The notes beneath the pieces are model-generated. The model searched no databases and was not told the DNA's origin. It saw only the letters and a list, made by a program, of their open reading frames with translations. Shown one piece after another: positions 5,255 through 64,000 of a stretch of 64,000 nucleotides of DNA (the stretch's first letter is position 1; every line of letters begins with the position of its first letter). The position numbers were made by a program, and so were the translations under genes. The stretch is taken from the NCBI GenBank assembly GCA_950295325.1, contig OX485805.1:46276758-46340757 (forward strand). Reading direction: 5' to 3'. Origin of the DNA: Polytrichum commune. Lineage: Eukaryota > Streptophyta > Polytrichopsida > Polytrichales > Polytrichaceae.

Positions 5255-5259
5255 GTACA

Positions 5260-5845: not shown

Positions 5846-5904
5846 TTAGTTGTCTCGGATCCGAGACAACCATTCCTGACGTGAGACTGAGCCGTGAAAA
5901 TCGA

Positions 5905-6238
5905 CGATCAGACCTCAGATCAGGAAAGACTACCCGCTGAGTTTAAGCATATCACTAAGCGGAGGAGAAGAAACTAACCAGGATTTCCCTAGTAACGGCG
6001 AGCGAACCGGAAAGTGCCCAGCTTGAAAACCGAGGGGCTTCGCCCCTCGAATTGTAGTCTGGAGAAGCGTCCTCTGCAACGGACCGGGCCCAAGTTCCCT
6101 GGAACGGGACGTCGGAGAGGGTGAGAACCCCGTCGAGTTCGGACCCTGTTGCTCCACGAGGCGCTGTCTGCGAGTCGGGCTGTTTGGGAATGCAGCCCTA
6201 AGTGGGAGGTAAATTCCTTCCAAGGCTAAATACAGGCA

Positions 6239-6273
<35 letters not shown>

Positions 6274-6645
6274 GAGGGCGCGGGGGTCGTGGAGCAGCTT
6301 TGGGCGTGAGCCCGAGTGAAACGGCCTCCGGTGCATATCTTGGTGGTAGTAGCAAATATTCAAATGAGAACTTTGAAGACTGAAGTGGAGAAAGGTTCCA
6401 TGTGAACAGCAATTGGACATGGGTTAGTTGATCCTAAGAGATGGGGCAATCCTGTGTCAATGGCGCAATGCGCCCCGTGGATCGAAAGGGGATCGGGTCA
6501 ATATTCCCGAACCGGGCCTCGGCAGCGGACGGCGACGTGGCCGAATCTAGAGACGCCGGCGAGGGCCCCGGGAAGAGTTCTCTTTTCTTTTTAACAGCCC
6601 GCCCACCCTGGAATCGGATCACCCGGAGATAGACACAGATCGTGT
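5905..6645 (+). pseudogene. 26S rRNA pseudogene with internal deletion
   Basis: From about 5905 the sequence follows the 5' end of plant 26S rRNA ('ctacccgctgagtttaagca', then 'gtagtctggagaagcgtcctc' and 'gcgctgtctgcgagtcgggc') up to 'accgcgagggaaag' at about 6268. It then jumps straight to a region normally more than 1 kb downstream ('ggagggcgcgg', 'cttggtggtagtagcaaata', 'gatcctaagagatgggg', 'taacagcccgcccaccctgg') and ends near 6645. Missing domains, many substitutions in universally conserved stretches (for example 'catatcactaagcgg' for 'catatcaataagcgg') and lack of a surrounding rDNA unit make it a dispersed nuclear rRNA relic. A rRNA-derived SINE is less likely because a second, non-contiguous domain is present. 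Confidence 0.93.
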
Positions 6646-7239
6646 TACAGGAAAGGGCAGAGCAGCTGGCTAATGAGGGAAAGGCCAAAGCATATGCCCT
6701 TTCAATGGCGGAGAAGCAAACTCCCTCTCCGGACACGGAAAGGAGAAGAGAAGAGGGTGGGGGGGGGGGTAAAAGGTTTCTGGATGGATGGATGGATGAC
6801 CGGGACTAGGTGGGGGAGAGGCTAAAACTCACCACACTGGTCTCACTCACACAACCTCGAAATCGACACTCTCCCCCTCAACTCACCACACATTTCCCAC
6901 AAATGACGCAGTTTAGGGTTTCGGGTGAAGAAGCAGACTTGTGATTTGTGAGCAAGTATGCAATGGAATGAGTCTACAAAAAAAATAATGAACAATCCGT
7001 GTAATGTAATGTAAGAATTGGATATGCGCACCTCGCTATAGCAGTTGAGATTGTGAAGATGCTTCTCTAGGATCCCACCCGACCTCGAAGCTGCACACTG
7101 AAAGTCACCCGCCCACGAAGCTGCACACTGAAACTCTCGCCAGGTTGGATGCTTCAATATCATATTCCTCGCCCGAGATTTTCAAAAGAATCAGGAAAAA
7201 ATTGCCCTTTCACCCTGGTCTCGGATCCGAGACAAGGCT
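6646..7239. other. Intergenic between rRNA relic and small gene
   Basis: Contains a purine-rich stretch with a G10 run (about 6760) and four GGAT units (about 6782-6797). A short duplication of 'cgaagctgcacactgaaa' lies at 7087 and 7117. No coding or RNA feature is supported. Confidence 0.5.
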
Positions 7240-39510: not shown

Positions 39511-42500
39511 CTACTTCAAATCGTAACCTAGAAATTGTGGCACACTCAATGTACCTAAAACTCGAAGGTTATATCCAGGATCATTGATTAAGTAGTGTCC
39601 GGGTGCTAGGAGAGCTTTCTCCGCGTCTTTGTGGGCTTCGTCTTCGTGACCAAGCTTGAAGTTCACATATGCTCGATGCTTTAGAACTTCGTAATCATCC
39701 ACCGGTTCGGCCAACTTAGAAGCACGGTTTAGATCCTCCAATGCCTCTTCATAATTGCCCATGAGCTCTTTTAGTACACCTCGCTCTTGCCAAGCGAATG
39801 AATTAGTTGGATCCGCTTCCAATGCCCGATTAGCACTTTCAAGTGCTCCACTATAATCCCCTATCATTGTTTTGGCAAAACATTCGTTCCTACACACATT
39901 TTGCATAAGGAGGATTTCTAGTGAATATGTGAATTGAAAATTTTCTAACCAAATAATCATATGTGAGCAGTGTTCCAATTGGGGCCATTTCCTAGGTAGA
40001 CGAAGCCCTTAGTTAATTTAGAAATGCAATACCAACAATTTTTGAGAGCGAAGGGGCAATAAGAGGGGGTATGGAAGCAAAATTGGGGTTGGGACTTGCT
40101 AGCTTGTGTGCTCATTCGTTGGACAATCACGACCATTGAAACTAAATGAAGGGTTGCATTGGACAACCGAAGTTGTCAATGAATATTTTCATGTGTTAAG
40201 AAGTAGGTGCATGTTCTTTAATGTTGGTTATCTCATTGCTTCTTGCATGCCTCTACTCTTCCTCTAGAATTTTCCTTCTCTCCAATTTACAGGATATTGG
40301 GAAGGGGGGTCCACTAACAGAACAAAAGTGGGTGAAATAAGCAGAGAAAATATTGTGCATGTAATTAACGACACAAGTAAAACCTAGCAAAGTTTAAGGT
40401 GAAAAGGTCTTACGATTTATGAATATTGTCATTCTCCGGATCATCGAAGTCGGCCGACTCAAAATCTGCAAGGGCTTCCTTGTAGAGTTTGAGTTCCATG
40501 TTGACTTGCCCCCGGGCCACCTTTGCTGCGATCGCATTCAACTGGACCTTGTTATACTTCTCAGGGTCCATATAAGTCAGTATACGAATGGCTCCACATT
40601 GCATATCATCATCGACGTCGTCATGGAGGAAATTCTCCAATGTGGCCATGATCTCTGGATTTTGAGTTGAAATGAAGGCCCGGTTCATCTTGTTGGCAGC
40701 AACGAGAGTCGACAAGCAAGTGATCAACCACATCGGTGTCAAAAGGATGTCTTCCTTGTCATGCGTGGCTTCCAAAAGCCGGCCAAGCACGGAAACCAAG
40801 CTGGTCGAATTCATGAGTTTTAGCGAAGTCTCCTCGTCGTCTGCAATACGTGACAAGGCAAAAGCCACTCTGGTTTTTAGCCAAGGCTCGTCTTCGGGTT
40901 GGTCCACATCAAGCGCACTCACCAATGTGTCGACAAGCCCTTCAATGCTCGCGATTTTAATTCGAGCGCTTTTGGATATCGCCAAATCACCTAAGCACTC
41001 AATAGCGAACGAGTGAATCTTAATATCGCTCTTGTCCGGTTGAAGTATGGCTTCTAGTAGTGTTTGCAGCACAGAAACATTGTCCAAAATGGAGTCGCAA
41101 TTCGCAGGATGGGCGAGGCTAGATAATGCCCAAAGCGCTTTGATTTTTAGGTCAGCCGGTACTTTGGGTGAGAGCATATTAACCAACCTTTCGTGAGTGA
41201 GTCTTGTGTGTATGGTCAATATGGGCTCCACTGAATCCCAAACCCACGACATAGCTATCAAAGCTCCACACACCTTAGTGAATGTTTCCTTCTCTTCGAG
41301 TAATTTTGCGCAACTTTGATCGTCCAACTCCATGTGAGTGATGAACCTCATAATGACCTGCAAGGCAATAGTAAAAAAAATTGATCAGTCTTTATGTTGT
41401 TGTGAATAGTAGGAAGTCCTCAAGATAGCAAGAGGAGGATTCTTAGAGAGAAGTTCTTATTACACTGACTATGGTAAACACTGTGGGTCATACTATTGAG
41501 CTTATTTCCACATGTGGATGCACAATGTGTACACCAAAAAGTTTGGGGATAATATTGTGGATGCACAATATTTAACATAAGAGCTTCGCGCTGTAGAGTA
41601 CAATATATCTTTTGGATTGATAGTACTGGGCATTAAAAGACTTAAAACTTAGAGGGAGGAAGTGGGCACATCACGGGGCAATGACAAGTGTAAATAGGGC
41701 TAAACACAAATACTTGCACGATGCTCCATATTGTGGGTCACATTACATGGTTGCCAGGGTCAGTCACACTAAAACATCCGCCCCCGATATTTAACATAAT
41801 TTGTACAATCATGACAAAGCTACAAATGTCAAAGTACATCAGTGACCCAATTCCAACACAAGCAGACAACTATGTCCTTCAAAAAAATTACTGATGGCAT
41901 TATGCTAAGCATCAAAAAGACAACACTATCTGGATTTTGTATTCTGATTTTTTCAGGGCTGGGGCAGACTGTGTAACCAGTTTACATCACAAAGGAACTT
42001 GGTATTTCGTAGACCATATCAAAATCACGAAATGTTGAAATTTCACGAACTCAACATTGACTCCAAGTGACGGATTTGCTACTTTTCAATAACTTCCGTG
42101 AAATGAATCAAGCACATTAAGCTTCTCAAGTGCTCAACGTGTCAATTACAGGTACTTCAAAGATTATTTGTGCTAGATTTCAATTCAAGTAAAATGGTAT
42201 AAGGGGTCACGGGAGGCGTATTCACATCACCTTTGACACAAGCTGGTGACTTTGCATTTTCTGTTTGTCTGCATTTTGTGAAGGTAGTAAAATGTGGACA
42301 AAATGTCGAATGGCTTTCTTTAGGTCCTCGATCCTTTCGTGTTGCTCGAGTGGAAGATTGAGTGTCTTTGAGACCTCCATTATCGTCTTGGAAGCCTCAG
42401 TAGTGAAGATATCCTTCTTTGGGTTGGCATAGAGAACAGAAAGGGCTCTCGCGAGTTCGCTCTCTTCGCTTAATATGTCATGACCAGATGTCATGTTGTT

Positions 42501-44420
42501 GTGTACCATCATACTGCAAAGTATTTTGCTAACCTCATCCTTGAATTCTTTCAAAATCACGTCCAGGAGGAGGCCCGACAACGTCCATTCGTTTTCGAAT
42601 TTGATATGAAACGGGGGTTCGGACATGGAAATCTCAACCAAGTCGACTGAAATGAAATCGTGGTCCTTGAGGTGTTTGAGGGACGTCTTGAAAGCAACTC
42701 CAGAACATTTTGGACGGATGTGCTTGAAGAAGATCACAAGAAGAGGTTCTGGCAGAGCTTCAGCATCACAAAAGGCCATACAAAACAAAAGGTTTTGATC
42801 ATCAGATGGCAAACCTTTTATGGCCATGACATACGCCACAATCACATTGTCATATCTCACATGCCCAAAAACATTATCCTCGTCATCGTCATCATTTTGT
42901 TGGATTGACACACGGTCATAGTAATCATCATAGACCTCAGTCCAGGAGCTACTATCATCCGGGTTATGGTCAATTTGTCTTCCAATAGTTGCAAGAACCA
43001 CAGGCAGCGAGTCTGCTTTTGATATTATGTTGTCTGCAACATCCTGTAAAACACCAACTTTTGAAAACTGTTAAGATTGACTCGATTCACTGGATTTAGA
43101 AGTTCAAAATCTGGATATGGTGCAATATGGTAGACTCGTGATGTATGTCAACTAATTATATGACTTCAACAAGTTGTCAAATGATTTGAAGCGTGAACTT
43201 CACGGATGTGTTTTTTCACATGTAGAACGTGTCACAATTGGAAATGCTTTAGACACAAAAATAACAAAGGTGCATAAGAATCGGATACTCACTTGAAAAC
43301 TGCTGGGAATCTCCCCATTCGGCAAGTTCGAAACACAATTACCAAGAATTTGACGTGCTTCCTCGAGTGTAGGTTTCTGCATGTGGACTTCTCTTGCACC
43401 GGAACAAATTCCTCTGCCACCACGATCAGAGGTGATAAGATACTTCACCTTCTTTGCATCCAAAACCCTGAGATCCCTCACCAGTTTCGCATCATGCACA
43501 TCATCGAGAATTATGAGAAGATTTAACTCGAGAAGCCGTCGTTGCAGTTTTTTGAGATGAGACAAATCAGTCTTGCCTTCTGGATTTGAATCCTTCCTCA
43601 AATCACCTTTACCCTCTTCATTCGACTCAGATGTAATGTCAAACCCCAAATTCTTCAGCAACTTGATACAGACAGAGCGACTGTTTGCTTTCGGACCACA
43701 TGGTAGAAATTGTACCCCATCTGTAAACAATTGTGTGGATGGTCCTGACTCTGGTGAAGATGTTGCAATTTGTCGGTAGTGTTGAGCTAGGGATTTGGCA
43801 AGACAAGTTTTACCTGACCCGGGGCCTCCATACAGAGTGACAACTTGATCCCCTTGCATATCCTCCAAATGTTTCTTCACCGATTCCTCGGTCCCAGACA
43901 GTTTCACAATTTTCTTGTCCAGAGTATTTTGCAACACATCTGGAAGCTCATCAGCAATCCTTTCAAACATCAAGTCAGCCTCCTGCTTCTCTCTAATTCG
44001 TGAAGGTATTCTTTCGAACGCGCGAACCACTTTGTCCATGCAATCTTTCAAAGGGATCGGAAACGCACGTGCTTTGAACATGAATGACAGGCAAGGGATT
44101 TGGAAAGCGTGGCTCGCCTTGTACATGAATGAGAGACAACCATTGCTTTGCAATTCCTCCAATTTCTTGCTCTCTTCCTGGAGGAGTTTTACGGCGATCG
44201 CGAGTGGCTCCCGCACAATTTCTTCTTGTGCTAAACCATTCCTTCTTATGGCTTCCACCCACCAGACTTTCCTCTCTTCCATTTTGGCTTTCAGGTCTTT
44301 GAAATCTTCCAAATCCTTTGAGGCTGCGTACCACTCATCCTCACCGTCTTGTACAATTTTTGTAGCTTCTATTGCTAATGTTCCAAGTAATGTGGATATG
44401 TCCATATTTCGGAGCTTCAA
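39511..44420 (-). CDS. NB-ARC-ARM-TPR immune-receptor-like protein, copy B (intact)
   Basis: Minus strand, four exons joined in phase: 44420-43293 (376 codons), 43043-42231 (271), 41357-40414 (314 plus 2 nt) and 39889-39511 with its stop, giving about 1087 aa. Residues 1-180 form a helical N-terminal domain with a tandem near-duplicate (CLSFMYKASHAFQIP / CLSFMFKARAFPIP, 95-123). NB-ARC follows: P-loop GGPGSGKT 198-205, kinase-2 LLIILDD 301-307, RNBS-B KYLITSDRG 326-334, and a GLPL-like LPVVLATIGR early in exon 2 followed by a winged-helix-like region. Exon 3 is an armadillo-like helical repeat array (LWALSSLAHPANCDSIL..., LVDTLVSALD...). Its end and exon 4 hold about four TPRs (GDYSGALESANRALEADPTN, GNYEEALEDLNRA). 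No LRR is present. By family it is likely a nucleotide-switched cytoplasmic sensor. The alternative start MDISTLL lies five codons in. Confidence 0.87.
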
Positions 44421-49566: not shown

Positions 49567-49930
49567 GGCCGGTTTACACTACGGTGGAGAAGTCCACCGG
49601 TCATGAAAAAAAGGGCGTTTCTCAATTGTGATTGGTCGAAAATGCAACTCTTGACCGGTGGGTGTTTACACTAGGTGAAGAAAACAATGGTGGTGAACTT
49701 TTCTCATGGATGATAAAATGACATGGCCGCCTACATGGCGGCACTTTTTGGAGTTGGGCTTCTCCGGAGGAGGAGTTTCTTGTATGGCCTCAAGAGGCCG
49801 GAGAAGCCCAACTCAATAAAAATAATTTATTGCCTTTAATTCTTCTCCGGCACATTCACCATTTGCCTCATAACACTATATTAAACATTTCGGGACTTTC
49901 GGGAGTCCCAAAGTGAAGATTTTTTTACAT
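49567..49930. mobile_element. Possible transposon terminus with internal hairpin
   Basis: At the point where copy B homology stops, the sequence reads GGGCCGGTTTACACTA after TTAA, similar in style to PIF/Harbinger ends with TAA-type targets. A related internal stretch (GTTTACACTA) recurs at about 49667. CCACCGGTCA/TGACCGGTGG form an inverted pair. GAGTTGGGCTTCTCCGG (about 49754) is mirrored by CCGGAGAAGCCCAACTC (about 49799), a 17-bp hairpin stem. The opposite terminus was not found in the window, so element status is uncertain. Confidence 0.4.
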
Positions 49931-49939
49931 TTTGGGGAC

Positions 49940-50215
49940 ATGGGAACATATTTATTGCTCCCAGGAACATGCAACTAGCTTGTGGGAACGTGGGAACAAT
50001 GAATTTAGACCATGTGAATGCCAGATGCGCACGTGGGAACCTATGTATGGGAACGTTAAAGCGAACGCATAAACGCTCTATGGGAACATGGGAACGATAT
50101 ATGGGAACGTTGGGAACGTTCTATGGGAACGCGGGAACGCTCTATGGGAACGTATGTGCGCACTGTGGAACGGGGGAACAAGAAGACATTTTGTGGCTAC
50201 ATGGGAACGGTGTGT
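49940..50215. repeat. GGGAAC-rich degenerate array
   Basis: Fourteen exact GGGAAC hexamers lie in about 270 bp on the plus strand, mostly as TATGGGAACG or GTGGGAACG with irregular spacing. It sits downstream of the DUF7869-like gene. Microsatellite decay is possible; so is a protein-binding array. Confidence 0.85.
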
Positions 50216-50669
50216 GGTCGCGGCAGGGTAGTGTGGTTTGCAAACGTGATAGAAGGGGTGTTTGTGGTGTGCACAGTGACAGACCGAGGGCTCATTAATA
50301 CAAGTAAACCCAAACCCACATCCAAATACAAAGGATAGACCTTGCATTACATACTTCAAAGTTCAAATTACAACACTTCACATTAGATAAATGAACCCAC
50401 CCTCTATAATGCTGGTGGTTTCCATTAAGAGTTGCACGGGTACACCGTGCCCACAATGGGGTTCCATTTAGCTGCATAGTGTTGAAATCAACAAAAATTG
50501 CACCCACATGTCCGAGAGGAGCCATGATGGTCTCCCATCGAGGAACCACCCCAAAAAAATTAGTACCAATCATTGGAGTATTTGATGTGGTGTCTCACAT
50601 TGTCAAGGAAATCACATCTAATCATGAATCATTGTGTGACGACTACGATGTGGGTTTTCCAGTCTCGCA

Positions 50670-53600
50670 TTACGAGGAAGGGTTGCCCCGAGCTCCCCGT
50701 CTACCAGTTGCACGGCCACGACCTCGAGTTCCATGTCCACCCCCTACATTTCCACGTCCACGACCTACTCGTCGCGCACTCGGCACATCAACGTCCTCCT
50801 CAACCGCCATCCCTCCGCGCTCTTGCGCAGAACAACGGCGAAGGTTGTCTTTGGCAAATTCAATCTGCTCTGGTGGAATAGTAATCTTAAGGGGCTCAAC
50901 ATCTTCATGTGCAGGTAGAGGCCATGCTGCCAAGATGCAGTCAATTGGTTGCCAGTCGGGGATGGAATATTTCGAATCGGCTTTCCACTTGAAGTTCGTG
51001 TTGGAGTCCCAACCATGGTATTTCTTTGTTATGTCTCTAGCAGTTGAAGTGGGAGTGAACCATTGTACCAGAATCTGACGGGGATGGTCCCCAGTGACGT
51101 TCAAGTTTGGTGGACACAAAGCTCGGCACACCCAAATGGGTCTATCAATATCTTGATCTTGGGGTCGAAGAATGAGGAAATGCCCCTCATGCACGTTGTC
51201 GGCAATGCGGAAAGCCGGTGCAGGTCGAAGGTTAGAGGGGCCCACATAATGGTCATCTGGTTGGTGTTCCTCACGAAGTTCACCAGTACTCATGAAAGGA
51301 TGTGCGTCCCTTTCGATTCGGGAGGATGGCCAGAATCCCTCCTGGAGTGCCAATCCCGCAGTGTACACATTTGTGAGGGGTGCCCGTAATGCCTCCAGTA
51401 CCCCAGTCCAGTATTGTAAAAGATGTGTTTGTGAGCCCCTATATGCTCCGGTCATGTCATGGTCACATATAGATTGCCAGTAGTCAACAAACCCTTGCAA
51501 CCCAACAAGAACATCGTCCAGTTTTGCCATTTCTCGAGGTTTAGCAGGGTAAGGTTCCCCAGGTGGGAAAACTGGCTCCCCCTTTATGTTGGATTTCCAC
51601 ATCAATATGCCATCCTTGGGCAACCATTCATCATGCGTACTAAGCACCTTGTAATGCATGACGGGCCAACCATCATCCCGTACAACAAATTTGAATTGTT
51701 GGGCTTTCGTATGGCCAATGAGTTTGTCTTGGCCATCAGGAATGTACTCACTAACAAAAGCCCTCCAATCTGGAAGCTCCTCTATCATATGTGGGATGAT
51801 AGGGACCTTCTCCATGTCCATGTATGATTTCATGAGCAAGGGGATAGTGGGGTAATCATGTTCACGCAAGTCCATACTCCATCTACCAAATGAAGCGTCA
51901 ATGTCGTCATGTGTATGACCAACTAAAAGGTAAGACACGTGGACCTCTGTGAATATACCTTTGGCCGTGAGCATGGACCAAAATGCCTTCACATATCTAC
52001 ACTTGTTGTCCTTCCAACAATTATCGAGTTGAACATGCAAAACGGGTGGAAGCGAGACAGCTGGAATAGGCTCACTAGGTGGAGGTCATAATCCTGACAA
52101 ACATACATCACTCCCATGAAGAACAGCACGATAAAGCGGTGACCGACCCGCACCATGGAATAGCATGCGAGATGATGAAGCCGGGGGCTGTTCCAAATCG
52201 CGAAGAAGCCTCGCAAATGAGCCCACAGTATGGTTGCAATCACCAGGATACAAATCCAATGCATAATGAGCATATCTCTCATCTCCATGGCCATGAGCCA
52301 TCATGCCTGTCACGGAAAGTGGTAGTTTCGTGAACATATCAGTGTCTTTGTTCTTGTTAGCAAAGCATGGAGATGCAGTTTTGCCATGGTCCATTTTGTC
52401 GTGAATGATGGTCAAAACCTTGCGCGGATGCTCAATGGACAACGCTCTCATACAACGGTAAGCATTACGAGCGGATTCTTGCTGTGCCTGGTGCTTCTCC
52501 AACTGCTTGGAAAACCCGATGTGTGCGGCAGAACCTTTAACATGTTGAAGAATAATAGCCATAAGTGAATCGCATTTCCCACAGCGAGCAAAATTGTCCC
52601 CTGCTCTTTTTGTCACGTAGTGCTTAAAATAATTCTGTCTTATTTGGCTCAAAGTCGAAAGAGAGATTGGTTGCAACCCACATTTGTCATTCACCTGAAT
52701 ATCATACCACATACAACATTTAGACAGCCACAGAAATGAGAACACCTGGATTGAGGCAATCACTAACAACACATTGAAAATGGACTAAGTGGAACATCGG
52801 GAGCCTACTAACCTGGTTGATTGTAACTAAAAATTTCTTCCATTTTGTGCCGCGAGGCAAGACCATCTCCACTACTCGAGTACCATTAGGCAAAGTGCGG
52901 GATTTATGAGGCATCATGTCCGCTTTGTCCTCTAAGAGGTTGGAAAGAGTGGCAGTGGCTTGCTGAGTGGACACACGATACCGTTTGGTGTTCAAGTTCC
53001 CATGGTCTCGTGGTCGCACCCCACAATTGAACTCTTGTCGATTTCTGTAGAACGCGGTTTTTGAAATCACAAATATGTGCCTCCATGCGATTAGGCAAAT
53101 ATCACGTCCACTAAGTGTTACCACATTCGTATGCCCCCCCGGAAGTGGATGTACTTGTCCGTGGACCTCAAGACGTTTTGCATGCCTCATCCTTGTGGAG
53201 CAATCATAAAATTCAGTTCGAAGAGCGAGAGCCTCATCTCTAGGAAAGAATCTAAGGCACTCGCGATCACAACACAAAACTGCAGATAGTTGTTGTATGC
53301 TTGCATTGGTTAGTATTTGGGATTTTTTCGTTGGCTTACGACGCTCTGGTATCCTGGATGTTTCATACGCTCTCTTCCCGTCCTTCCTTCGCTTCTCCAG
53401 CGACTTGGTTTGTGCCCGTAATCTGTGGCCACTAACAAGGAGATGATGTGCCAGAGTGCAACCACCGTGGAAAACACGAGAGATTGGCCACGCCCTCAAA
53501 GCAAACATGGCCCCCATGTCCATCATGCCATGAATAGGCTCCATTATTAGTACACCAACGTGATCAGGTCCCAAACATTTGTCTTCCACGCAGTCAATTG

Positions 53601-53863
53601 GGTTTACATTACGGCAAATTCCTTTTGCCATATTGTGTCCATGTTCATTCACAAGCATAACAGGCTTGTTCACCCAATCATCCCTACGAAGTCCACTGCA
53701 ATTCGGGTCAATATCTTCAACCGGAACAGTTTCATCTTCCGAGAATATTGCGTCGGAAAGGGATGACCCCTGCACAAACACTTCATTAGTAAAACATATT
53801 CCAACAAACAATGTGAAACATCTTAGTTTAGAAAACCACCTCTGTGGTAGATTCCGCATCCAT
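50670..53863 (-). pseudogene. DUF7869-like gene with one in-frame stop (putative transposon-derived)
   Basis: Minus strand. Exon 1 53863-53840 begins with ATG (MDAESTTE), exon 2 53769-52813 starts after TTTGTGCAG, and exon 3 52694-50670 starts after GATATTCAG. All junctions are phase 0. Exon 2 is Cys/His-containing and basic. Exon 3 holds a Cys pair (CGKC) and then, after a TGA at 52088-52086, the signature HVQLDNCWKDNK... LLVGHTHDDIDASFGRW typical of DUF7869 proteins, ending in an Arg/Gly-rich tail (RRVGRGRGN). About 200 codons before and 470 after the TGA lie in the same frame with no other damage. The family is multicopy in many eukaryotes and I infer a transposon origin; its biochemical function is unknown to me. 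A single late nonsense mutation, or a sequencing error, would explain the break. Confidence 0.8.
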
Positions 53864-54085
53864 GTGCTCGGCCAATCTGCACAAGAACACTTGCGCGGTC
53901 AGTGTTACAACTTAGGCCTGATATAGCTTCACGTACCATTCGCTATTGAATCATATTAGTGCTTGTACTCGCAATCACCAAACGTTTAAACTAAAAACAC
54001 AACTGTAGATATCCTAAAGAACGAAAACTTCATCCTGTATTATCTGCCTTGTGACCTCACTAGATATCACCTATATCACCTGTTA

Positions 54086-54179
54086 CAATATGTCGTGTAT
54101 GTGGCGCGGGCATGCATCCCACTTTCACTCGATCGAGTGAAAGTGGGATGCATGCCCGCGCCACATACACGACATATTG
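54086..54179. repeat. 94-bp perfect palindrome, family 2 core at centre
   Basis: Arms of 47 bp match without mismatch or spacer, centre between 54132 and 54133. The central 26 bp (54120-54145) are the recurring core around TTTCACTCGATCGAGTGAAA. The outer arms (caatatgtcgtgtatgtgg...) are specific to this site. The palindrome lies about 220 bp upstream of the DUF7869-like start codon. Confidence 0.98.
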
Positions 54180-54299
54180 GGCCCTTCATGCCTTTTCTTT
54201 TCTCAGAAAATCCGGTCATAAATAGATGTTACCCAATCTATCCCACCCGATTAACACCTACCTCCCTCTATACATATTATTTGTGTCGATAATAAAAAC

Positions 54300-54380
54300 G
54301 TCGATCACCAAACAATCACATCCTCTCCCCAGAAACTAATCACATCCTCATCCCCAAACAATCACATGTTCATCCCCATG
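54300..54380. repeat. Short tandem repeat, unit about 27 bp, three copies
   Basis: 'caatcacat..tcatcccca' type units directly precede the three-core palindrome cluster. Confidence 0.7.
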
Positions 54381-54527
54381 CAATCGACTCGCCAGCCCAC
54401 TTTCACTCGATCGAGTGAAAGTGGTGGGCCTGCCAGCGCCGCGCCACAAAACTTTCACTCGATCGAGTGAAAGTGGGCTGGCGAGTCGATTGCAGGCCCA
54501 CCACTTTCACTCGATCGAGTGAAAGTG
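54379..54527. repeat. Three family 2 palindrome cores with inverted flanking units
   Basis: Cores at 54398-54423, 54451-54474 and 54502-54527, 52 bp apart. The left flank of core 1 (TGCAATCGACTCGCCAGCC) reappears inverted to the right of core 2, and the right flank of core 1 (GGTGGGCCTGC) reappears inverted to the left of core 3. The unit between cores 2 and 3 is therefore the inverse of what a direct tandem array would carry. Confidence 0.95.
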
Positions 54528-55583
54528 TTGGGCCTCCCAGCGCCGGTTGTTCGGGCCGTACTGTACGGACTGCAGGGATGGGTACAGGGCCCCGCAAATA
54601 TGGTGCCGCTGCAATGCTCCATGCATATGGAACGGCACATTGAACAGCGCCTCTTCGATCAGGTGTTTCTTGTTGTGTAGGACCGAACCTTGTGTGAAAT
54701 TGATCCCTGGAAGGGATAGAAAGAAGAATGTTGTGGTGTTGTGCTCCCTGGCACAAAGGGCGACAAAAGAGGGTTCGAGTGTGCTCCTTCCAGGCTTATA
54801 TAGTCGGGTGTAGCAGAATTGGTGGGAGAATAGTGCCCTAATCCAATTTTGAAGGTTCCCTCCCTTTCGTTTTAGGCCGTCACAGATCCGTATGCGGACG
54901 GCTTTTGATGCCTTTGGGTGGGTTTTTACATGCACCTTGATACAATTGTGTTAGTGGGATTGTTTTGCATTATTTTCGGCATGATGTGTTTAAGCCAATC
55001 CGGTCCACCCCCAATCCTGTAATGATAGTTAGCACATCGCCCACTCTTGGGCATCACTACTATGAGCGCGTACTACCCGCTGGTACACCTTTGGATCCAA
55101 GTTTGATTGATGAGATGAAAACACGCCAGAATGTGGTCCTATCAACAGGTACCCTCAGCCCACCACTTCCATCGCACTTGTGGCATCACACCCTGCTATT
55201 GAGGCGCGTACAACGTTGAGGTACTCACAAGCGCTCATTGTCGTTGCAACCTACATTTGTGCACCGGCTTCAAGGTTGAAGATATTTGCACCCCTAGACC
55301 TTGAATCTCTTGAAAAGAAATGGATGTCCCCAACATGTCATAACAATTACAATTAAATCATCGGCCCTCATCCCAACGTATCTATGTATGCTTGTAGTAT
55401 TGCAGATAAATTGCCATGCTCCCAATGCTATCGGAGTGGTTTATGGCACCCCGATGAGTTCTCCTTCCGAAATTCATATTAACTATTTCAATATTAATCC
55501 AAAATTAATTATTATGTGGGTGGGTCCAATTTCCAATTACAATGTGCTTTGCACATCTCTCAACATTGACATAATGTCTTAAT
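54528..55583. other. No gene recognised
   Basis: Open frames on both strands around 54500-54935 arise from the GC-rich palindrome cluster and share no recognisable domain. The rest is unremarkable. Confidence 0.5.
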
Positions 55584-55876
55584 AACTTCCCAATAGAGGT
55601 TAGTAACTTCCCAACTTCCCAATAGAGGTTACTAGTAACTTCCCAATAGAGATTAATAACTTCCCAATAGAGGTTAGTAACTTCCCAATAGAGATTAGTA
55701 ACTTCCCAATAGAGGTTAGTAACTTCCCAATAGAGATTAGTAACTTCCCAACTTCCCAATAGAGGTTACTAGTAACTTCTCAATAGAGATTAGTAACTTC
55801 CCAATAGAGGTTAGTAACTTCCCAATAGAGATTAGTAACTTCCCAACAGAGGTTAGTAACTTCCCAATAGAAGCAA
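55584..55876. repeat. 21-bp minisatellite with higher-order structure
   Basis: About 13 copies of TAACTTCCCAATAGAGGTTAG alternate with a variant ending GAGATTAG. A longer variant with a doubled AACTTCCC occurs at 55604 and 55741, giving a 137-bp higher-order period. Confidence 0.95.
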
Positions 55877-56128
55877 ATTAGGAAGGGGCTTATTAACCCC
55901 ATTATAGTAACCCCATTGGGCTTATGGGGTTCAACAATTCATAAATTAAATTGGAAGAATTTGAAATTTGCGCCTCCAACTTCATCTGAGGATGCCGTCT
56001 CGAATTGACCCTAGACCCTTCTACCCTATTTAACAATTAGTCCAATACCCTAAATGAAAGGTGAAAAGTGCATGTGTGGGTTAATATTAGTGAAGATTGA
56101 GTAGCCTCTGGAGGCCCATCAGCCTACT

Positions 56129-56164
56129 TAAACCCTAAACCCTAAACCCTAAACCCTAAACCCT
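56129..56164 (-). repeat. Interstitial telomeric repeat (CCCTAAA on plus strand)
   Basis: Five uninterrupted units of the plant telomere heptamer, read as TAAACCC on the plus strand, in otherwise ordinary sequence. Confidence 0.95.
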
Positions 56165-57414
56165 ATACTCGAAGTACCACTTTGGTTTGCATTTGAAGCA
56201 AATAATGAATGGGCTACCATGATACAAAACCAATCCCAAATATATTTGATATTCATATTAAGTGCTATGTCTGAATCGGTTGCTTCCACCATTGGTCACA
56301 CTTTTTACATTATTTTGTTAGGTCCAATAGCTAAGTCATAGTCTAAGAACTCTAAAATGATTTGAATCAGCTGATCAAACTAGTCAATTTAAAGCGTTGT
56401 CTACATTTGAGCACGTCGTAAGTTAATCTCATCCTAACACGTGTTCATTTAGTGTTCCCTCATAACTGCACGTATTACAAGCATACAACTCTTGGACAAT
56501 TGATCTGCGTTAGTGACAAATATAGGTGTTTAATTAAGAAGCGCGAACATAAGGCCCTCAAACCTTAATCACCATGTGTCCAAGTGTCTTCGTGGCAATA
56601 ATGCATCCAAATAAATGCATGGCTTGGACCCTGTAGGAAGCAGTTACAACACTGGCCATTCCCGCAAATTCCTGTGAGCATGCCACGTGTCACATATCTT
56701 CACATCATGTCTTCAAAAGTTCACGCCCAAGCAGTTGCTCTTGCAATGGTCGGAGTCAATTGTTGAAAGTGCCTATATTGTTCGTAATTGGGAGTTCACC
56801 CATTGGATCTCCCCTTTATGACCTCTCCACTTTCCTTCCATCCACACTCATAACCTTAGTACGTGTAATTAGGTTGCCTTCGCAAATGGGTAAAGTTGTG
56901 TTGCCTCTTACATCGCCTCTTTACGCAAGCAACTTTCCATAGGTCAAACTCGGATCAAAAACCTTATATTAAGTTTTTTGGTTCATTCCTATCACAATTA
57001 AAGTCCATACAAAATTTGTGTATTTTGTTGTACTGGTAATAAATAATCAAGTAATGTGACATGCCAATAGATTAGTGCAAGACTACCTAATTGCCAATAT
57101 TGGTGTAGGTAGATTCATTGGCATTTATTTGAGCTACTAGTCTAAGAGACAAATTGAATCCAAACTTAAGTTAGAGTTAGAGCAAACCAAGAGCTACCTC
57201 AATTGATGGAAACAGGGATTTGAGTATATTTGGATTATGCATTAATTTTGGACAACACAACTGCCTAGTAGTATATGGCGTGCACTAGATTGGAAAACTA
57301 CATGAAATTAATATAATGGTGGTTGGCAAATATGGCATACATTGTCAAACATTTGAAGTTGTCACTGATTGTTGTGTTGTCACTCCCACTCCAGTGCGCA
57401 ATAATTGTGAACTT
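56165..57414. other. Segment between opposed telomeric blocks, no gene
   Basis: No coding frame with splice support and no repeat recognised. Confidence 0.5.
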
Positions 57415-57441
57415 TTTAGGGTTTAGGGTTTAGGGTTTGGG
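57415..57441 (+). repeat. Interstitial telomeric repeat (TTTAGGG on plus strand)
   Basis: Three exact TTTAGGG units followed by degenerate TTTGGGG and TTTATGGG, opposite in orientation to the block at 56129. Confidence 0.9.
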
Positions 57442-58210
57442 GTTTATGGGTTAAGTTATTTAGTGGGCTCCAATCTGCCTTTGAAATCCAATGAGCTCAG
57501 TTATGTGCAAAATGCAAGGGTGGCCATTACGAATGGAACGGTCATTTGAAGCTCCAATGTGGTGTTTTGAAAAATGGGGTAACGTTATGGTCACTAACCT
57601 TTCACCATTTAAACTAGTGATCAATCTTGGGTCAAGTAACATAGTGACATTTCAAACATATTGGCATAAATATGCTTACAATTCAACCTACAAGCCTCAA
57701 CCCTCCATCCTAAACATGCACTCTAAAAACTAAAACTCTATGCCTGAACCCCAAGTTCTAAACGTTACCCCTAGACAATGAGTTTAATATCTAGCCGACG
57801 TTGAATGAATCATATCATCGTGACGAAGGCCACAAACCTATGCATTGGGGAGTCAAGTGTTCCACATGTTGATGGATGAGAGTAAACTTGTCAAAGCATA
57901 ATTATTATACCCATAAGAAGTTTACACATTTGGTATGACACTAGTCTTATAACTAGTGTTAGACATAAACGCGCCACCACCCTCCCTACGACCATGCACC
58001 TTCTCTTATCTTTGTTAAGAAATTTTCACATCCTTACTAACACTAAATTTGGGCATGTGACTTACCATAGTCCAAGTTTAGTGTTTGAGTTCACAATGAA
58101 TGTTACTTACTTTCATCTAGGGTTACTAATATTTAGTGTATGCGTTCGTATTTTGTGTATCTAACACTAAATATCACTAGAGTGGGTTGGGACATATATG
58201 CACCACTATA
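57442..58210. other. No gene recognised
   Basis: AT-rich. Isolated short frames only (for example 57491-57733), without splice support. Confidence 0.5.
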
Positions 58211-60235
58211 GTTAACTAATCATTAATAGGTCAATGATCATGCACAAATAATATCATCGTGAACTAAACCTTAAAGGTCAGCAATCATGCACCACTATAG
58301 TTAACTAATCATTAATAGGTTAGTGATCAAGCACCACTATAGTTAACTAGGTTCTGAGAGGATTGTTTATTGCGCACCACTATTCACCACTTAGTGTAGT
58401 TAGTGGCGTTGTAGTTGCCACTATTATTTAGTGGTAGAAGGTCTCGAATACTTGCCAGCAGATTGCCTACTAGTAGGCTTATGAAAGTGCACAATATTAA
58501 TATCGGATGGAGGGCTAACCCTTGCGACACCCACTTTCACCATATGTTATAATCAACACAACAATAACATAACATCTGTTATGTTATTATAACCAACAGA
58601 CAACCTTAAAGTTTACCACCTTGCAATAAAGAAGTTCAACCCAAGTTAACTTATGCGTAGTACAATGAACACACGACATCCTTACACCGTCGCGTAGGCC
58701 TAAGGTATAGACACCCATAACCGATAACGCACCCATCACCGACAAGTAGACCTATGCATGAACGCGCATGGCTTAAATTAGCAGAAGTCGATGTTTTTAT
58801 ATTATAAACGTGAGGACCATATGACTTCGTGGAGGGGAAGTTGTCGAAATAGTTGTTGTCGGTCATGGGTGAAGCTATATGTTGGTTATGGACTCTAACC
58901 AACTTTCATGTTTGCAAAATTTGTAGTAATTCTAACTTTACTTAATCAATTTTGAAAAAAAGCTCGACATTCATCATGGACATTATTTTCCTACGCAGAA
59001 AAATTAACTCCTTCTTGATAACCGAAGATATGCTATGCTGAAATTCTTAAGTTATCGGTTATAGGTATAATATGTACCTTAACTTAAATTTAGGGGAAAT
59101 CTAGATATATTTAAAGATCCTACTACAGGCCACCGGTCCCTCTATAAATGTCCGTGAAGGATAGAAGATTTCAAGAGTGATTTAGATTGTGAATTTCTTA
59201 CATCTTTCTGCTACTGCTTTCTTGTTGTCCTCGAGATTATCATTGATACATTCTATTAACCTTGATAATGTCACCCTTGGTAATAGAACACCTTAAAGTT
59301 TGAAACCGATTTTCTTAGTGTAAAACTCCCTTGTTATTATCCCTATCATCCTAGACAATGCCACTATCCAAAATCCAAAATACATCCAAAATACTCCAAA
59401 ATACTCCAAAATCCGTAGTGTGAACGTTATAATATCAATTATGGATGGATTGTATGTGATGGTTGGATGGACAGATTGTAATAGCCAAAAGGGTCATGAG
59501 CCGCCCCCTGTGATAATGCAATGCTATTCACATGGTCATGAGCCGCCCATGTGCACCAACTTTGAACGGTGTTGTCTATACACGGCACTCAAAGGTGTTG
59601 TATGGGACGGCACTGTCAAGACTTCAGACCTTAAACAACTGCCAAAATAACTAGAGTTAACTAGAGTTTTTTCAAGACATTAGAAAACAACTATAGTTAA
59701 CTAGGAAATTTTCAAACCAATTTGAAGAACAACTATAGTTAACTAGAAATATTTAAGACCATATTAAAAAACAACTATAGTTAACTAGAAAAAAATTCAA
59801 CCAACTACAACTTGAGAGTTCCAAAAAATGTAAGGAGTCAACCAACAAGTTATTTCATTTTTGAATTAACGTATATTACATAACTTCTATAATAGACCTT
59901 ATGTTTGTCACCCATGAAGGCCCATCCCAAGAAGGACTAGAACCCATTATACTCTAAGTAACTTAGACATAATGAAGTCATCATCATGATGCTCATTGGG
60001 TGTTGATTGAGTGCGGATCACAACTGGAATCAAGTCCCAAATTTAAATTTTGAATAAAAGAGAAGGAAAATATATAGATGCTATGATCTGTCATGGTACT
60101 ACACTACAGGTTGTGCCCAACTTTAGTTAACTAGATATAACTATAGTTAACTAGATTTTTTGGCATACCAAAATCAAAACAACTATAGTTAACTACATTT
60201 TTTGGCAGGTCAAATCACAAACAACTATAGTTACG
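58210..60235. repeat. Dispersed AACTATAGTTAACTAG motif, about ten copies
   Basis: Copies or near-copies at about 58216, 58296, 58338, 59650, 59688, 59730, 59771, 60121, 60137, 60179 and 60219, all in the same orientation. In the first three it is part of a longer repeat ('caccactatagttaactaatc...aataggt'). The motif nests two small palindromes, AACTATAGTT and TAGTTAACTA. Confidence 0.9.
58563..58588. repeat. Perfect hairpin, 12-bp stem, 2-nt loop
   Basis: AATAACATAACA, TC, then its exact complement TGTTATGTTATT. AT-rich; function unknown. Confidence 0.9.
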
Positions 60236-60537
60236 AAAGGCAACTAGTTAACTGATAGTTGAATTAGTTGGTTAGTTGTCCAAGGTCTGCAAGACTTCTC
60301 GGCCTCTAATATGCATCCCACCTTCCGTCACATGTGTTCACCTAATATGTGTCTATGAGGGTTTCGGCTTGTGTGAAGTAATTTGGGATGTTAGTTAAGT
60401 TCTACGGTTAGGTGAGCTGGTCTAGGTACAGAGTAAGTGTCGACTTAAGCTAAATTAGTTCAATTGGTTTGCAGTGCAGGTGTTATTCGTTGTGTTGTTG
60501 TTTTTGTTGTTGTTGCTACATTGGAAGCTAGTGATTC

Positions 60538-60831
60538 CATGGAAGAAGACCCATTGATTGTTGATAGCAGTCACTGTGATGACGAGTCTAAAGTAGTATA
60601 GCTAAGCGATCATGCACAAAAATATGCTAAAGATGTTTTGAATTTTATGGTTAGCCAAGGTTTTCAGATTTTCAACACCCAGGAGTTGTTAGGAATGGAA
60701 AAAATCCATAACAAACTCATTAGAATTGGTGTTGGACAATAAACATCACTAAAACAATGTGACATTAGAAGCTCCTTTGTCTCTAGTGAGAGGTCTTTAC
60801 CTGGTCTCAATGACAGATTATGATGTGCTCT
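60538..60831 (+). pseudogene. Decayed open frame, unrecognised
   Basis: One frame from ATG 60538 (MEEDPLIVDSSHCDDESKVV) continues past a TAG at about 60598 (LSDHAQKYAKDVLNFMVSQG, then FQIFNTQELL) and a TAA at about 60739 to a TGA near 60820. Composition between the stops is protein-like, suggesting remnant coding sequence. No family was recognised. Confidence 0.4.
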
Positions 60832-60939
60832 TGCTGTTATTCACAATTTTGAATTAGAGTTTACATGTAAAAACATTGAAGTCTTGTATTTGTTATTTTC
60901 TTTTTTTACATTGAAATTTTATTTTGATTGTCTACCTAT

Positions 60940-62125
60940 TTTTTTTGATAATATCACATTATGCACAAATCTTCAGAATGTGACATTATCAAATATGACA
61001 CCTTCAATGCTTATATCACACTTTATGGTGAAACGGATGCTGTGATATTATCAAGGTTAGACTGTACCAATATGTTGAAATGTCAGTACCGTTTCAATAT
61101 ACTCAAACATCAATGTTTCATTATTGAAATTATTATTCTATCTTTTCACCATGTGTGTTCTTTAAGTTTGGTCTCACTTATATTATAATAGTATTGAACA
61201 TCGCTTAAATGATAAACATGATAATGTGCACTTTGAACAAAAATTTCAATACATACATGAAGGGCAATTTTTGAGCTAACCCTTCATTTTGAAAGGGAAA
61301 ATTTTAAGTTACCCTTCCTTATGAAATACAAGCAACCCTTCAAATTTATTCCCTGACACTAAACACCATAAACAATGTAACAATACTTATTGAATGCAGG
61401 GCCTAGTAAACAAATTAAACTTTTTAGGTTTGATCACCCCACCTTATTTTTCACTCGGAAATTAAACTCAAGGTTTTGATGATGATTTCAAGACAAAATT
61501 GCTCAGAAAAGAAATATTTGGACTACAAGGGAGCGCTAAATTGTCGTCCAAAGTATTCCAATGTGCTACTCTCACTGTCATAATGTAGATTTTTCAATTA
61601 ATATTTTTGCTTAAACATGTTACTTATGTTGATGAATTGTATCATATGGGCAATTAGTAGGCTAGCCTTGACACTTTGAGACCCCGCCAGCATCTAGTTT
61701 AGGCCCTTCGCAAATTGTGCACTTGACACTAAACATCATAAACGGTGTAGTACCTTCTTACATGTGGTGAAATATATATGTATATGAATATGTATGTGTA
61801 TATGTATAATTTTTGAGCTGCATATATATAGGTCCATTCAACTGAATCGTTTTTGAGAGTAGAGATTATCAACGTTTCAATACATAGTACACTCTTTTAA
61901 ACGTGTCTTCTTGATGTTTGCTCTTTGATCCTCACTGAACCCCATACCATTCAAATATAGGGGTTTCGGTTTATATACCAGCCAAGCGGTGGCGGTGGCC
62001 GTATCATATCTAAATTGAACCATTGTGATGGAATCAAGCCATTTGGACGAAAGCTCATTTGGTAAGTTAAGTGAATCATAAGTGAAAGCACCAACTAACA
62101 TCATACAGTTTGCAATCAATACCCT
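60940..62125. other. No gene recognised; AT-rich
   Basis: Contains the inverted pair TGATAATATCACA (60947) and TGTGATATTATCA (about 61040), and a 'tatatgtatatg' tract at 61770-61810. Confidence 0.5.
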
Positions 62126-62129
62126 CTAC

Positions 62130-62157
62130 AGTTAGTAGGAAGTACCCTTCCTACTAA
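62130..62157. repeat. Perfect hairpin, 12-bp stem, 4-nt loop
   Basis: GTTAGTAGGAAG, loop TACC, then CTTCCTACTAAC. No U-rich tail suggestive of a terminator. Confidence 0.9.
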
Positions 62158-62459
62158 CCCACACCCTCCTTAATGAGAACGGGTGAAACTACACCCTAGC
62201 CTACTCGTCCGCCCATCATGGTCCGGCGTCTAGGATCTGGGCCGTCCATTATTGATGGCACAATCCTGACCATCGGCACTTGGGCGAAGGGACGTGGCCG
62301 TTCCCAATCTTGGGTCCAGAATGACCTCCCCCGCTCAACACTTTCATTGTGTTTTCTCCTCTTCGATCCTAGTGTTTTCTCCTCTTGGTTCTTCCGTTGC
62401 AACATTGTGCACCCTCTCCCTCTCCGCACCCGGCTCCAAGTGTATTATGCATTTGCCTT

Positions 62460-62640
62460 CGTCTATGCTCCTTGCTTCATTGAAATTGCTGATCTAGTAT
62501 GCACCTTGCACCTTGCTTCACTGCCATCCGGTTGATCTCTTCTAGTATGCACCTTGTTTCATTGAAATCTGGTTGATATCTTGTAGTATGCACCTGGTTC
62601 ACTCCAATGTGGTTGAGCTCTGCCTCTAGTATGCACATTG
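62460..62640. repeat. Degenerate tandem repeat, unit about 41-48 bp, four copies
   Basis: 'tagtatgcacc' starts at 62495, 62543, 62584 and 62627, each followed by 'tt.ttca.tg..at..ggttga'. A stray copy lies near 62915. Confidence 0.85.
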
Positions 62641-63474
62641 CTCAACAATCTGCATCTTCCTTTTTTCAATTCACAATCTGCATCATATCTCCCTTTTCGC
62701 ACATTCCTCCACCCTCCTGAAGTGCCATCCACACCTGGGATCCACTCAGTATATCACAAAGAGCATCCTGGTTATGTTTATTTCATTGAATGCATTTTGC
62801 TTGACGTTTTTCTATACATTAGGCACCCTGAATTCTTATTAAGAAATCTTCTTTTGTTTGTTCCATCTCCATGGATTCGGGATGTTCACCCTGATACTCT
62901 TGATTTCTAAAGAGTATGCACCTGGAGCCTCCAAGTGTATTAAGTCAATTTTCGTGTTCCACATTGTTTGTTTGCTATGCTTCATTGAAATCTTCACCCC
63001 CAGCATCCTAAATTTGTTCAGTGCAATCGGCATCTTGAATTTTCCTTCGATATGCTCACTTTTTGAGGTATTTACAACTGGAACCTAATCACATTCTGGT
63101 TTTTCTTTTTCAATCCAGGCCCCTGAATCCTTGCAGCATAAGCATTCAGATTAGCCATATTCCTGTACACAATATTAAATAACCTCCATCTTGATCCATG
63201 TAGCAAGACATGGTATTGGTTTCTACAGTAATCAGAACTTATGTAAAATCCCCACTCCTGCTCTTATTGTTGATTCCAAGTGAAGGTCGTGCAAGCAGAG
63301 ACTGAGTAGCAAATATACATCCATACTCTTCACACATCAGGTACACTTCCCGGCTTGCATTGAATGTCAAAGACATAGAAATAAGAAGTTTACAGTCGAA
63401 GTATATTTCAAGATATAGTGGTGGGAAATATCCCCGTTCACACCTGACTGTACGGACACTCTTCAGGGTTGGAG
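62641..63474. other. No gene recognised
   Basis: Short frames on both strands without splice or domain support. Confidence 0.5.
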
Positions 63475-63959
63475 GCGCTGGGCCACTTTCACTCGATCGA
63501 GTGAAAGTGGCCCAGCGCTGGCGTGCTGGCTGCCTGAGAGCCATGGCTGGCCACTGGCCACTTTCACTCGATCGAGTGAAAGTGGCCCAGCGCTGGCGTG
63601 CTGGCTGCCTGAGAGCCATGGCTGGCCACTGGCCACTTTCACTCGATCGAGTGAAAGTGGCCCAGCGCTGGCGTGCTGGCTGCCTGAGAGCCATGGCTGG
63701 CCACTGGCCACTTTCACTCGATCGAGTGAAAGTGGCCCAGCGCTGGCGTGCTGGCTGCCTGAGAGCCATGGCTGGCCACTGGTCACTTTCACTCGATCGA
63801 GTGAAAGTGGCCCAGCGCTGGCGTGCTGGCTGCCTGAGAGCCATGGCTGGCCACTGGCCACTTTCACTCGATCGAGTGAAAGTGGCCCAGCGCTCGCGTG
63901 CTGACTGCCTGCTTGTGCCATGGACAACCATGGCTCACTTTCACTCGATCGAGTGAAAG
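63475..63959. repeat. 75-bp palindrome-cored satellite, seven cores
   Basis: The family 2 core starts at 63484, 63559, 63634, 63709, 63784, 63859 and 63936. Spacing is exactly 75 bp, except 77 bp for the last. Between cores an invariant spacer (cccagcgctggcgtgctgg..., ...ccatggctggccactggcc) is always in the same orientation and nearly identical. The first core is centred in a 44-bp perfect palindrome (63475-63518). Because 75 is a multiple of three, several frames on both strands stay open (25-residue peptide repeats such as LSLDRVKVAQRW); I do not treat these as coding. Confidence 0.97.
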
Positions 63960-64000
63960 CATTAATGTTGAGTTGAGTGATGCATTAATGTGGTTTGAAG

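What the first reader, a model, noticed from the sequence alone, without database searches (positions are those of the whole stretch)
54086..54179. 94-bp perfect palindrome grown around a recurring 26-bp core
The core around TTTCACTCGATCGAGTGAAA occurs eleven times in the last 10 kb, but only here is it flanked by 34 bp of locus-specific sequence perfectly mirrored on both sides. A core that is constant with arms that differ per locus is what one expects if the core promotes inverted duplication of its neighbourhood (snap-back synthesis, hairpin-ended break repair, or an enzyme cutting at the palindrome). A spacer-free 94-bp palindrome should be unstable, so perfection implies recent formation or selection. 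The palindrome is seen; the mechanism is inference.
Basis: partly seen in the sequence, partly recalled or inferred. Interest (0 to 1): 0.85.

Follow-up and report, generated by a model that had tools for sequence, protein, structure and literature searches.

The report
Self-mirroring palindromes inside a jumping gene
The perfect 94-base mirror sequence is real, but it is one part of a 22,000-base mobile element with many copies in a plant-like genome; relatives of the element carry different mirror sequences whose two halves tend to change together, as if one half were copied from the other.

Summary
The 94-bp perfect palindrome (54086-54179) is confirmed. It is not unique and not a fold-back artefact: the same 94 bp, arms included, lies at 13 loci of the 408-Mb genome, in copies of a ~22.4-kb DNA transposon. 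The transposon has AACACTATATT... ends, exact 4-bp target duplications in 7 of 7 copies read at both ends, a DUF7869 gene and a NIF phosphatase.

Paralogous elements carry symmetric cores at homologous places, with different letters. Other long perfect palindromes occur (116, 108, 68 bp). In 17 homologous intron palindromes, outer arms diverge more than nearby intron (0.108 vs 0.040; 13 of the loci). Yet arms of one copy match each other best (0 of 20,000 permutations). Mirrored changes number 22, against a mean of 7.4 and a maximum of 15 in 1,000 column shuffles.

Best explanation: control sites of the transposon whose symmetry is extended and restored by hairpin-templated copying (template switching). 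No binding protein is identified, and selection for symmetry is not excluded.

The parts
54086..54179 (.). 94-bp perfect palindrome: 26-bp core with 34-bp mirrored arms
   Evidence: 13 of 14 genomic copies of the segment hold it perfect
54120..54145 (.). 26-bp core CACTTTCACTCGATCGAGTGAAAGTG
   Evidence: 183 exact copies in the genome
54397..54527 (.). second array of three cores (54397-54424, 54451-54474, 54502-54527), with 44-nt arms mirrored around the first two cores (54379-54494)
54556..54570 (.). CCGTACTGTACGGAC motif, 47 bp from the nearest core centre; same motif at similar spacing in several related elements
50673..53898 (-). DUF7869 (PF25273) gene, probable transposase; ORFs 50673-52085, 52089-52784, 52723-53898. 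The window copy is interrupted once by a stop; three other copies read are open there
49872..49896 (+). left terminal inverted repeat AACACTATATTAAACATTTCGGGAC of the element
   Evidence: right end lies at window-coordinate ~72290, outside the window
49868..49871 (.). left 4-bp target site duplication TCAT (repeated directly after the right end)
49872..64000 (.). portion of the ~22.4-kb transposon that lies in the window
63443..63457 (.). CCTGACTGTACGGAC, second copy of the motif (2 mismatches), 48 bp from the first core of the third array
63475..63959 (.). array of seven cores, period ~75 bp, the first in a 44-bp palindrome; lies just upstream of the second gene (ORF from 64006)

Best explanation
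The palindrome is one of a set of dyad-symmetric cis-sites carried by a large DNA transposon. The window element places a short motif (CCGTAYTGTACGG-like) and, 47-48 bp away, an array of palindromic cores beside each of its two main genes, and a third array between the second gene's two ORFs, where paralogues have an intron. Shown: the element, its ends and target duplications, the recurrence of the 94 bp with it, cores at homologous places in relatives, and the concerted change of the two halves. Inferred: (a) the cores are binding sites of an element-encoded dimeric protein; (b) because each core can fold back, a polymerase sometimes switches onto its own nascent strand there, copies the neighbouring arm or array linker in inverted orientation and returns. 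That lengthens arms, turns imperfect arms perfect, and can write a new mutation into both halves. Transposition then multiplies whichever palindrome the source copy carried, so the copies here share one pair of arms.
For: Inside an element: 14 copies of the segment, 13 with a perfect 94/94 palindrome; 4-bp target duplications in 7 of 7 copies with both ends read. The 50 core places that were listed, of 183, all lie in copies of this family or its nearest subfamily. Placement: 13 of 17 paralogous loci have perfect GATC- or GGCC-centred cores, 5 at both of two homologous positions, 1 upstream only, 7 in the intron only. Motif-to-core spacing is 47-52 bp in 6 of 9 non-redundant cases. Symmetric divergence: 10 distinct fully symmetric 26-mers; two or more paired types at 10 of 13 pair positions, one of these resting on a single case. 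Concerted arms: same-locus arm difference 0.062 against 0.094 between loci, 0 of 20,000 permutations (17 loci); 0.056 against 0.073, 127 of 20,000 (11 loci). Mirrored changes: 22 against mean 7.4, maximum 15 in 1,000 column shuffles; 4 against mean 0.9, maximum 3. Outer arms diverge more (0.108) than the intron flank (0.040; 13 loci). Inverted duplication: L034 linker 39/39 identical to the inverted sequence across the core. Array collapse beside a perfect palindrome: L043 against L041, L042, L045. Template switching is known to homogenise inverted-repeat arms (PMC8604942, abstract and introduction read).
Against: No protein-DNA binding evidence exists, and no search identified a DNA-binding protein. 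One-sided mismatches outnumber mirrored changes (60 against 22 in the 17-locus set, 21 against 4 in the other), so restoration would be occasional. Loci entered the arm tests because their arms were long, which favours same-locus similarity somewhat. For the window's own palindrome no pre-duplication relative was found, and its arm resembles the neighbouring array linker only weakly (z 2.3). The flank in the rate comparison contains a core and a splice acceptor and may be constrained. Motif spacing differs in 3 of 9 cases (33, 67, 75 bp). Four of 17 loci have no perfect core of 14 bp or more. Selection for symmetry could also give concerted change.
Confidence: 0.55

Rival explanations
1. Selection alone: the cores are operators for a homodimeric protein, and symmetry in core and arms is kept by selection for two-fold symmetric binding, with binding specificity drifting between lineages.
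For: Homologous placement and a second motif at similar spacing in 6 of 9 cases; at core pairs 2, 5 and 7 only one paired type is seen.
Against: Does not readily explain mirrored arms of 34-58 bp whose outer part varies more than the flank, nor neighbouring cores in one intron that differ from each other by mirrored changes (CCTCTCGG and CCTCGCGG halves in L057, L066, L073).
Confidence: 0.22
2. RNA hairpins: the palindromes lie in transcribed leader and intron sequence and are kept as hairpins (splicing, silencing or stability), so paired changes are compensatory.
For: In paralogues one array lies just upstream of a TGCAG splice acceptor; paired changes in arms.
Against: No loop, many units per array, and higher divergence of outer arms than of the flank; no expression data here.
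Confidence: 0.12
3. An enzyme (element transposase, hairpin nuclease or recombinase) cuts or recombines at the core, and hairpin-capped break repair makes the inverted duplications.
For: Arrays gain, lose or invert core-bounded units cleanly: L012 against window, L039 against L040, L035, L105 against L034.
Against: Identical cores make slippage and template switching sufficient; beyond DUF7869 and NIF no family passed its cut-off in the element ORFs scanned (ORFs unspliced).
Confidence: 0.09
4. Assembly fold-back artefact at this locus.
For: A spacer-free long palindrome is a typical artefact form (general knowledge).
Against: Same 94 bp at 13 loci on six contigs, and different flanks with matching target duplications in the 7 copies read at both ends.
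Confidence: 0.01

Closest known systems
Quasi-palindrome correction / template switching between inverted-repeat arms (PMC8604942, abstract and introduction read)
   Same: Arms become identical, several bases change at once, and imperfect repeats become perfect.
   Different: There scattered short repeats in yeast genes; here repeated core arrays at homologous places in a multicopy transposon, with arms diverging between lineages.
Coding palindromes in Nematomorpha mitochondrial genes (PMC6649704, start of abstract in listing and discussion passages seen)
   Same: Many long perfect inverted repeats whose arms are kept identical; the authors consider repeat conversion and template switching.
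   Different: Mitochondrial and coding there; transposon-borne, apparently non-coding and centred on a recurring core here.
Subterminal motif arrays of CACTA/EnSpm transposons, e.g. Tgmt of soybean, 20.5 kb (PMC2613891, passages seen)
   Same: A large element with arrays of motifs able to form stem-loops, diverging between subfamilies and thought to bind an element protein.
   Different: Here these arrays are internal (4.2 kb or more from the ends), many units are perfect palindromes, target duplications are 4 bp, and no CACTA transposase domain was seen.

Membership tests
DNA transposon with terminal inverted repeats | inverted terminal repeats flanked by target duplications at dispersed sites | tested here: met
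   AACACTATATTAAACATTTCGG-type ends; exact 4-bp duplications TCAT, TATG, GTAT, TTAT, CAAA, GTTG, TAAA in 7 of 7 copies with both ends read
DNA transposon with terminal inverted repeats | recognisable DDE transposase | tested here: inconclusive
   only DUF7869 (E 6e-31) found; single-sequence AlphaFold model poor, mean pLDDT 32.3
CACTA / EnSpm | termini begin with CACTA | tested here: not met
   duplications abut AACACTA, not CACTA
CACTA / EnSpm | 3-bp target duplication (Tgmt: three bases, PMC2613891) | tested here: not met
   4 bp in 7 of 7
CACTA / EnSpm | Tnp2-type transposase domain | tested here: inconclusive
   no such Pfam hit in the element ORFs scanned, but the ORFs were not spliced
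CACTA / EnSpm | motif arrays close to the element ends | tested here: inconclusive
   the core arrays are not subterminal (nearest 4.2 kb from the left end); other subterminal repeats were not searched for
Palindrome evolving by template switching | two arms of one copy more alike than arms of different copies | tested here: met
   (0 of 20,000 and 127 of 20,000 permutations); loci had been chosen for long arms
Palindrome evolving by template switching | mirrored changes in excess of chance | tested here: met
   22 against mean 7.4, maximum 15; 4 against mean 0.9, maximum 3 in 1,000 column shuffles; 0.91 and 0.18 under plain independence
Palindrome evolving by template switching | observed before/after event in a pedigree | not testable with these tools
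   only one assembly is held

The most novel reading that the evidence does not exclude
An undescribed superfamily of giant DNA transposons (DUF7869 protein, a second two-ORF gene without known relatives, a NIF phosphatase, 4-bp target duplications) uses 'self-symmetrising' control sites. A protein of the element opens or extrudes its palindromic sites, which makes them hotspots of hairpin-templated copying. The sites can then change sequence quickly, lineage by lineage, while staying two-fold symmetric: a built-in way to change operator sequence without losing dimer symmetry.
Probability: 0.15. Interest if true: 0.8.

Novelty: new variant of a known kind. Interest (0 to 1): 0.6.

Why it matters
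Long spacer-free palindromes are generally held to be unstable (general knowledge). Here a family of elements keeps, lengthens and re-mirrors them at homologous places, with dozens of relatives in one genome showing different states. It offers a natural data set for how palindromes arise and stay perfect, and for how a dyad-symmetric site can change its sequence on both halves.

Tried and rejected
Assembly artefact: rejected by identical copies at 13 loci.

Dam-type methylation of the GATC centre, suggested by the first core types: weakened, because two lineages have GGCC centres (CTCGGCCGAG).

The 461-aa protein as a ParB/methyltransferase relative, read by eye: not supported by Pfam, PHROGs, NCBIfam or by PDB sequence searches with the single sequence (only chance-level kinase hits) or an 11-row profile (no hit); dropped as a claim. 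The 499-aa ORF likewise had no family hit and only a chance-level PDB hit.

DUF7869 fold: single-sequence model at mean pLDDT 32.3, not used for a fold search. No relatives confirmed in viral contigs. No paper in the library holds the word DUF7869.

Homology of the 34-bp arm to the neighbouring array linker: z 2.3, 12 of 500 shuffles as good; treated as unproven.

Literature. Nothing describing such palindromes in transposons was seen, but searches listed only 15 of 45, 10 of 25, 10 of 37 and 10 of 508 papers, and most subscription papers are not held.

Rows dropped: of 45 paralogous loci (17; 28, L049-L076), the 28 with an intron arm of 30 bp or more entered the arm tests (17 + 11); the other 17 had shorter or no such arms. 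This choice favours well-matched arms. For the flank comparison 16 of the 17 loci were entered (not L039) and 3 dropped for lack of a recognised acceptor. In the core table 111 of 163 distinct left/right combinations were used, chosen for near-symmetry, so only the variety of paired types is informative there, not the fraction paired. In one search two TGTACGGAC sites (L035, L044 at 979) fell outside the motif mismatch limit, and repeat copies L007, L009, L011, L012, L013 were not counted as separate cases; one of these, L011 at 3198, is a rearranged copy with a core 126 bp away.

Full report
Observation. The 94 bp at 54086-54179 equal their own reverse complement. Eleven exact copies of the 22-bp inner core lie in the last 10 kb, 0 expected. 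The genome searched has 407.8 Mb in 64 contigs, with the window at C3:46276758-46340757. It looks plant-like: TTTAGGG-type repeats near 56131-56165 and NB-ARC genes.

The palindrome belongs to a transposon. A 601-bp query around it has 14 full or nearly full matches on contigs C1-C6. Nine, the window included, share the top score; 13 of the 14 match themselves on the opposite strand over the palindrome at 94/94. Of the 14 copies, 12 share the whole 7 kb tested to the right, and 12, window included, share the left side as far as a sharp end at window 49872; the other two matches stop short of it. The ends read AACACTATATTAAACATTTCGG..., inverted at the other end. The window copy ends at window-coordinate ~72290, giving ~22.4 kb; a C6 copy gives ~22.5 kb. 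Left and right flanks repeat exactly 4 bp in 7 of 7 copies read at both ends. The element carries DUF7869 on the minus strand (E 6e-31), two large plus-strand ORFs of 499 and 461 aa with no family hit and a NIF-type phosphatase (E 4e-10). The 26-bp core occurs 183 times in the genome; the 50 places that were listed fall in copies of this family or its nearest subfamily, the other 133 were not seen.

Where the cores sit. In the window copy the arrays lie on the 5' side of the DUF7869 gene (54086-54527), just upstream of the second gene (63475-63959), and between the 499- and 461-aa ORFs (window-coordinates ~65511-65734). In paralogues that last place ends in a TGCAG acceptor and is probably an intron. 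A motif CCGTAYTGTACGGAC occurs exactly 23 times in the genome. In the loci I hold it, or a form with up to 4 mismatches, lies 47-52 bp from the nearest core centre in 6 of 9 non-redundant cases; the others are 33, 67 and 75 bp. Two such motifs adjoin the two gene-side arrays of the window element (54556-54570, and a 2-mismatch form at 63443-63457).

Relatives have other cores, equally symmetric. The 461-aa protein has 95 matches in the genome, 54 of them at 55-64% identity. Of 17 such loci read over about 6 kb (one 3.3 kb), 13 hold perfect palindromes centred on GATC or GGCC in one or both of two homologous positions: 5 at both, 1 upstream only, 7 in the intron only. L044, L046, L047 and L048 have none of 14 bp or more outside simple AT repeats, though L044 and L047 hold cores with one mismatch. 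Ten distinct fully symmetric 26-mers were counted, among them, as left halves, CACTTTCACTCGA, GGGTTTCACTCGA, CACTTCCACTCGA, GGGATCCACTCGA, AACTTCCTCTCGG, AGGTTCCTCTCGG and AGGTTCCTCGCGG. Two or more paired types are present at 10 of 13 pair positions (position 9 through one case only); unpaired cells exist at every position (2 to 37 of 111).

Long palindromes occur in several lineages. L034 has a 108-bp perfect palindrome, shared by two sister copies L105 and L106. L063 has 116 bp (arms 58, no mismatch), L043 68 bp, L040 60 bp and L035 52 bp. By inspection their arms are unrelated to those of the window palindrome. In L034 the 39-bp linker right of the core is the exact inverted copy of the 39 bp left of it, and resembles another linker of the array better in inverted than in direct orientation (scores 25.0 and 11.5; the direct score also exceeds shuffles). 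L035 shows the same reversal of unit orientation at the core (24.8 against 6.0). So in these two cases a long palindrome is an array linker in opposite orientation on the two sides of a palindromic core. For the window palindrome the corresponding test was weak (z 2.3).

Concerted arms. In 17 homologous intron palindromes (58-bp arms) the two arms of one locus differ by 0.062 on average, arms of different loci by 0.094; none of 20,000 re-pairings was as good. In a second set of 11 (34-bp arms): 0.056 against 0.073, 127 of 20,000. Mirrored minor changes number 22 against mean 7.4 and maximum 15 in 1,000 column shuffles; in the second set 4 against mean 0.9 and maximum 3. A plain independence estimate gives 0.91 and 0.18, but the column shuffles are the stricter control. 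Cells changed on one side only are commoner: 60 and 21. Five mirrored changes in the first set and one in the second are private to a single locus, against 13 and 12 one-sided private ones. Loci had been chosen for long arms, which favours same-locus similarity. The outer arms diverge by 0.108 between loci, the half-core by 0.041, the last 90 bp of the intron by 0.040 (13 loci); that flank includes a core and the acceptor and may be constrained. Fast yet mirrored change is what arm-to-arm copying predicts. Selection for structure with rapid compensation is not excluded.

Rearrangement around cores. L041, L042 and L045 have arms around core-spacer-core; L043 has such outer arms directly on one core, perfect (GTAGTTCTCAA mirrored), whereas in L042 the arms that would be brought together differ at two positions. 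The one deviant copy of the window element, L012, has the same 94-bp arms separated by core-spacer-core; that stretch resembles the neighbouring array's core-linker-core in the same orientation (93% over 90 bp). Which state is older is not decided in either case.

Interpretation. The transposon membership is shown. That the arrays are control sites is inferred from placement and spacing. That symmetry is made by template switching is inferred from the concerted arms and the inverted duplications, and rests on a known process (PMC8604942: abstract; introduction). The closest reported phenomenon that I saw is the perfect inverted repeats of nematomorph mitochondria, where repeat conversion is discussed (PMC6649704, passages). 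CACTA elements such as Tgmt have stem-loop-forming arrays near their ends (PMC2613891, passages), but this element fails two defining CACTA features (termini, target duplication) and two more are unresolved. No description of such palindromes in transposons was seen in searches, several of which showed only part of their hits.

Noticed in passing
window 2641-7237: A second recurring palindromic core, TTGTCTCGGATCCGAGACAA, with ~155-bp spaced and dispersed copies; 79 exact copies in the genome, and the ~50 places listed cluster in groups of 2 to 7 within about 5 kb, suggesting another repeat family of similar design.
   Followed up: partly
window 58180-60250: Many copies of an ACTATAGTTAACTAG-type AT-rich near-palindromic motif, seen by eye in the middle of the same transposon.
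   Followed up: no
window 55580-55880: Tandem array of AACTTCCCAATAGAGGTTAGT-type units inside the element, seen by eye.
   Followed up: no
window 56126-56165 and 57417-57456: Short telomere-type repeats (CCCTAAA)n and (TTTAGGG)n in opposite orientation inside the element, 1.25 kb apart.
   Followed up: no
L011 3192-3210 (C4:11856191): The C4 11.84-Mb copy departs from the other copies exactly at a CCGTACTGTACGGAC motif, as if two motif copies had recombined.
   Followed up: no
window 22562-23332 and 43200-44420: Two NB-ARC ORFs, the second near a weak HEAT/ARM-like ORF at 40410-41363; the surrounding ORF order looks duplicated.
   Followed up: no
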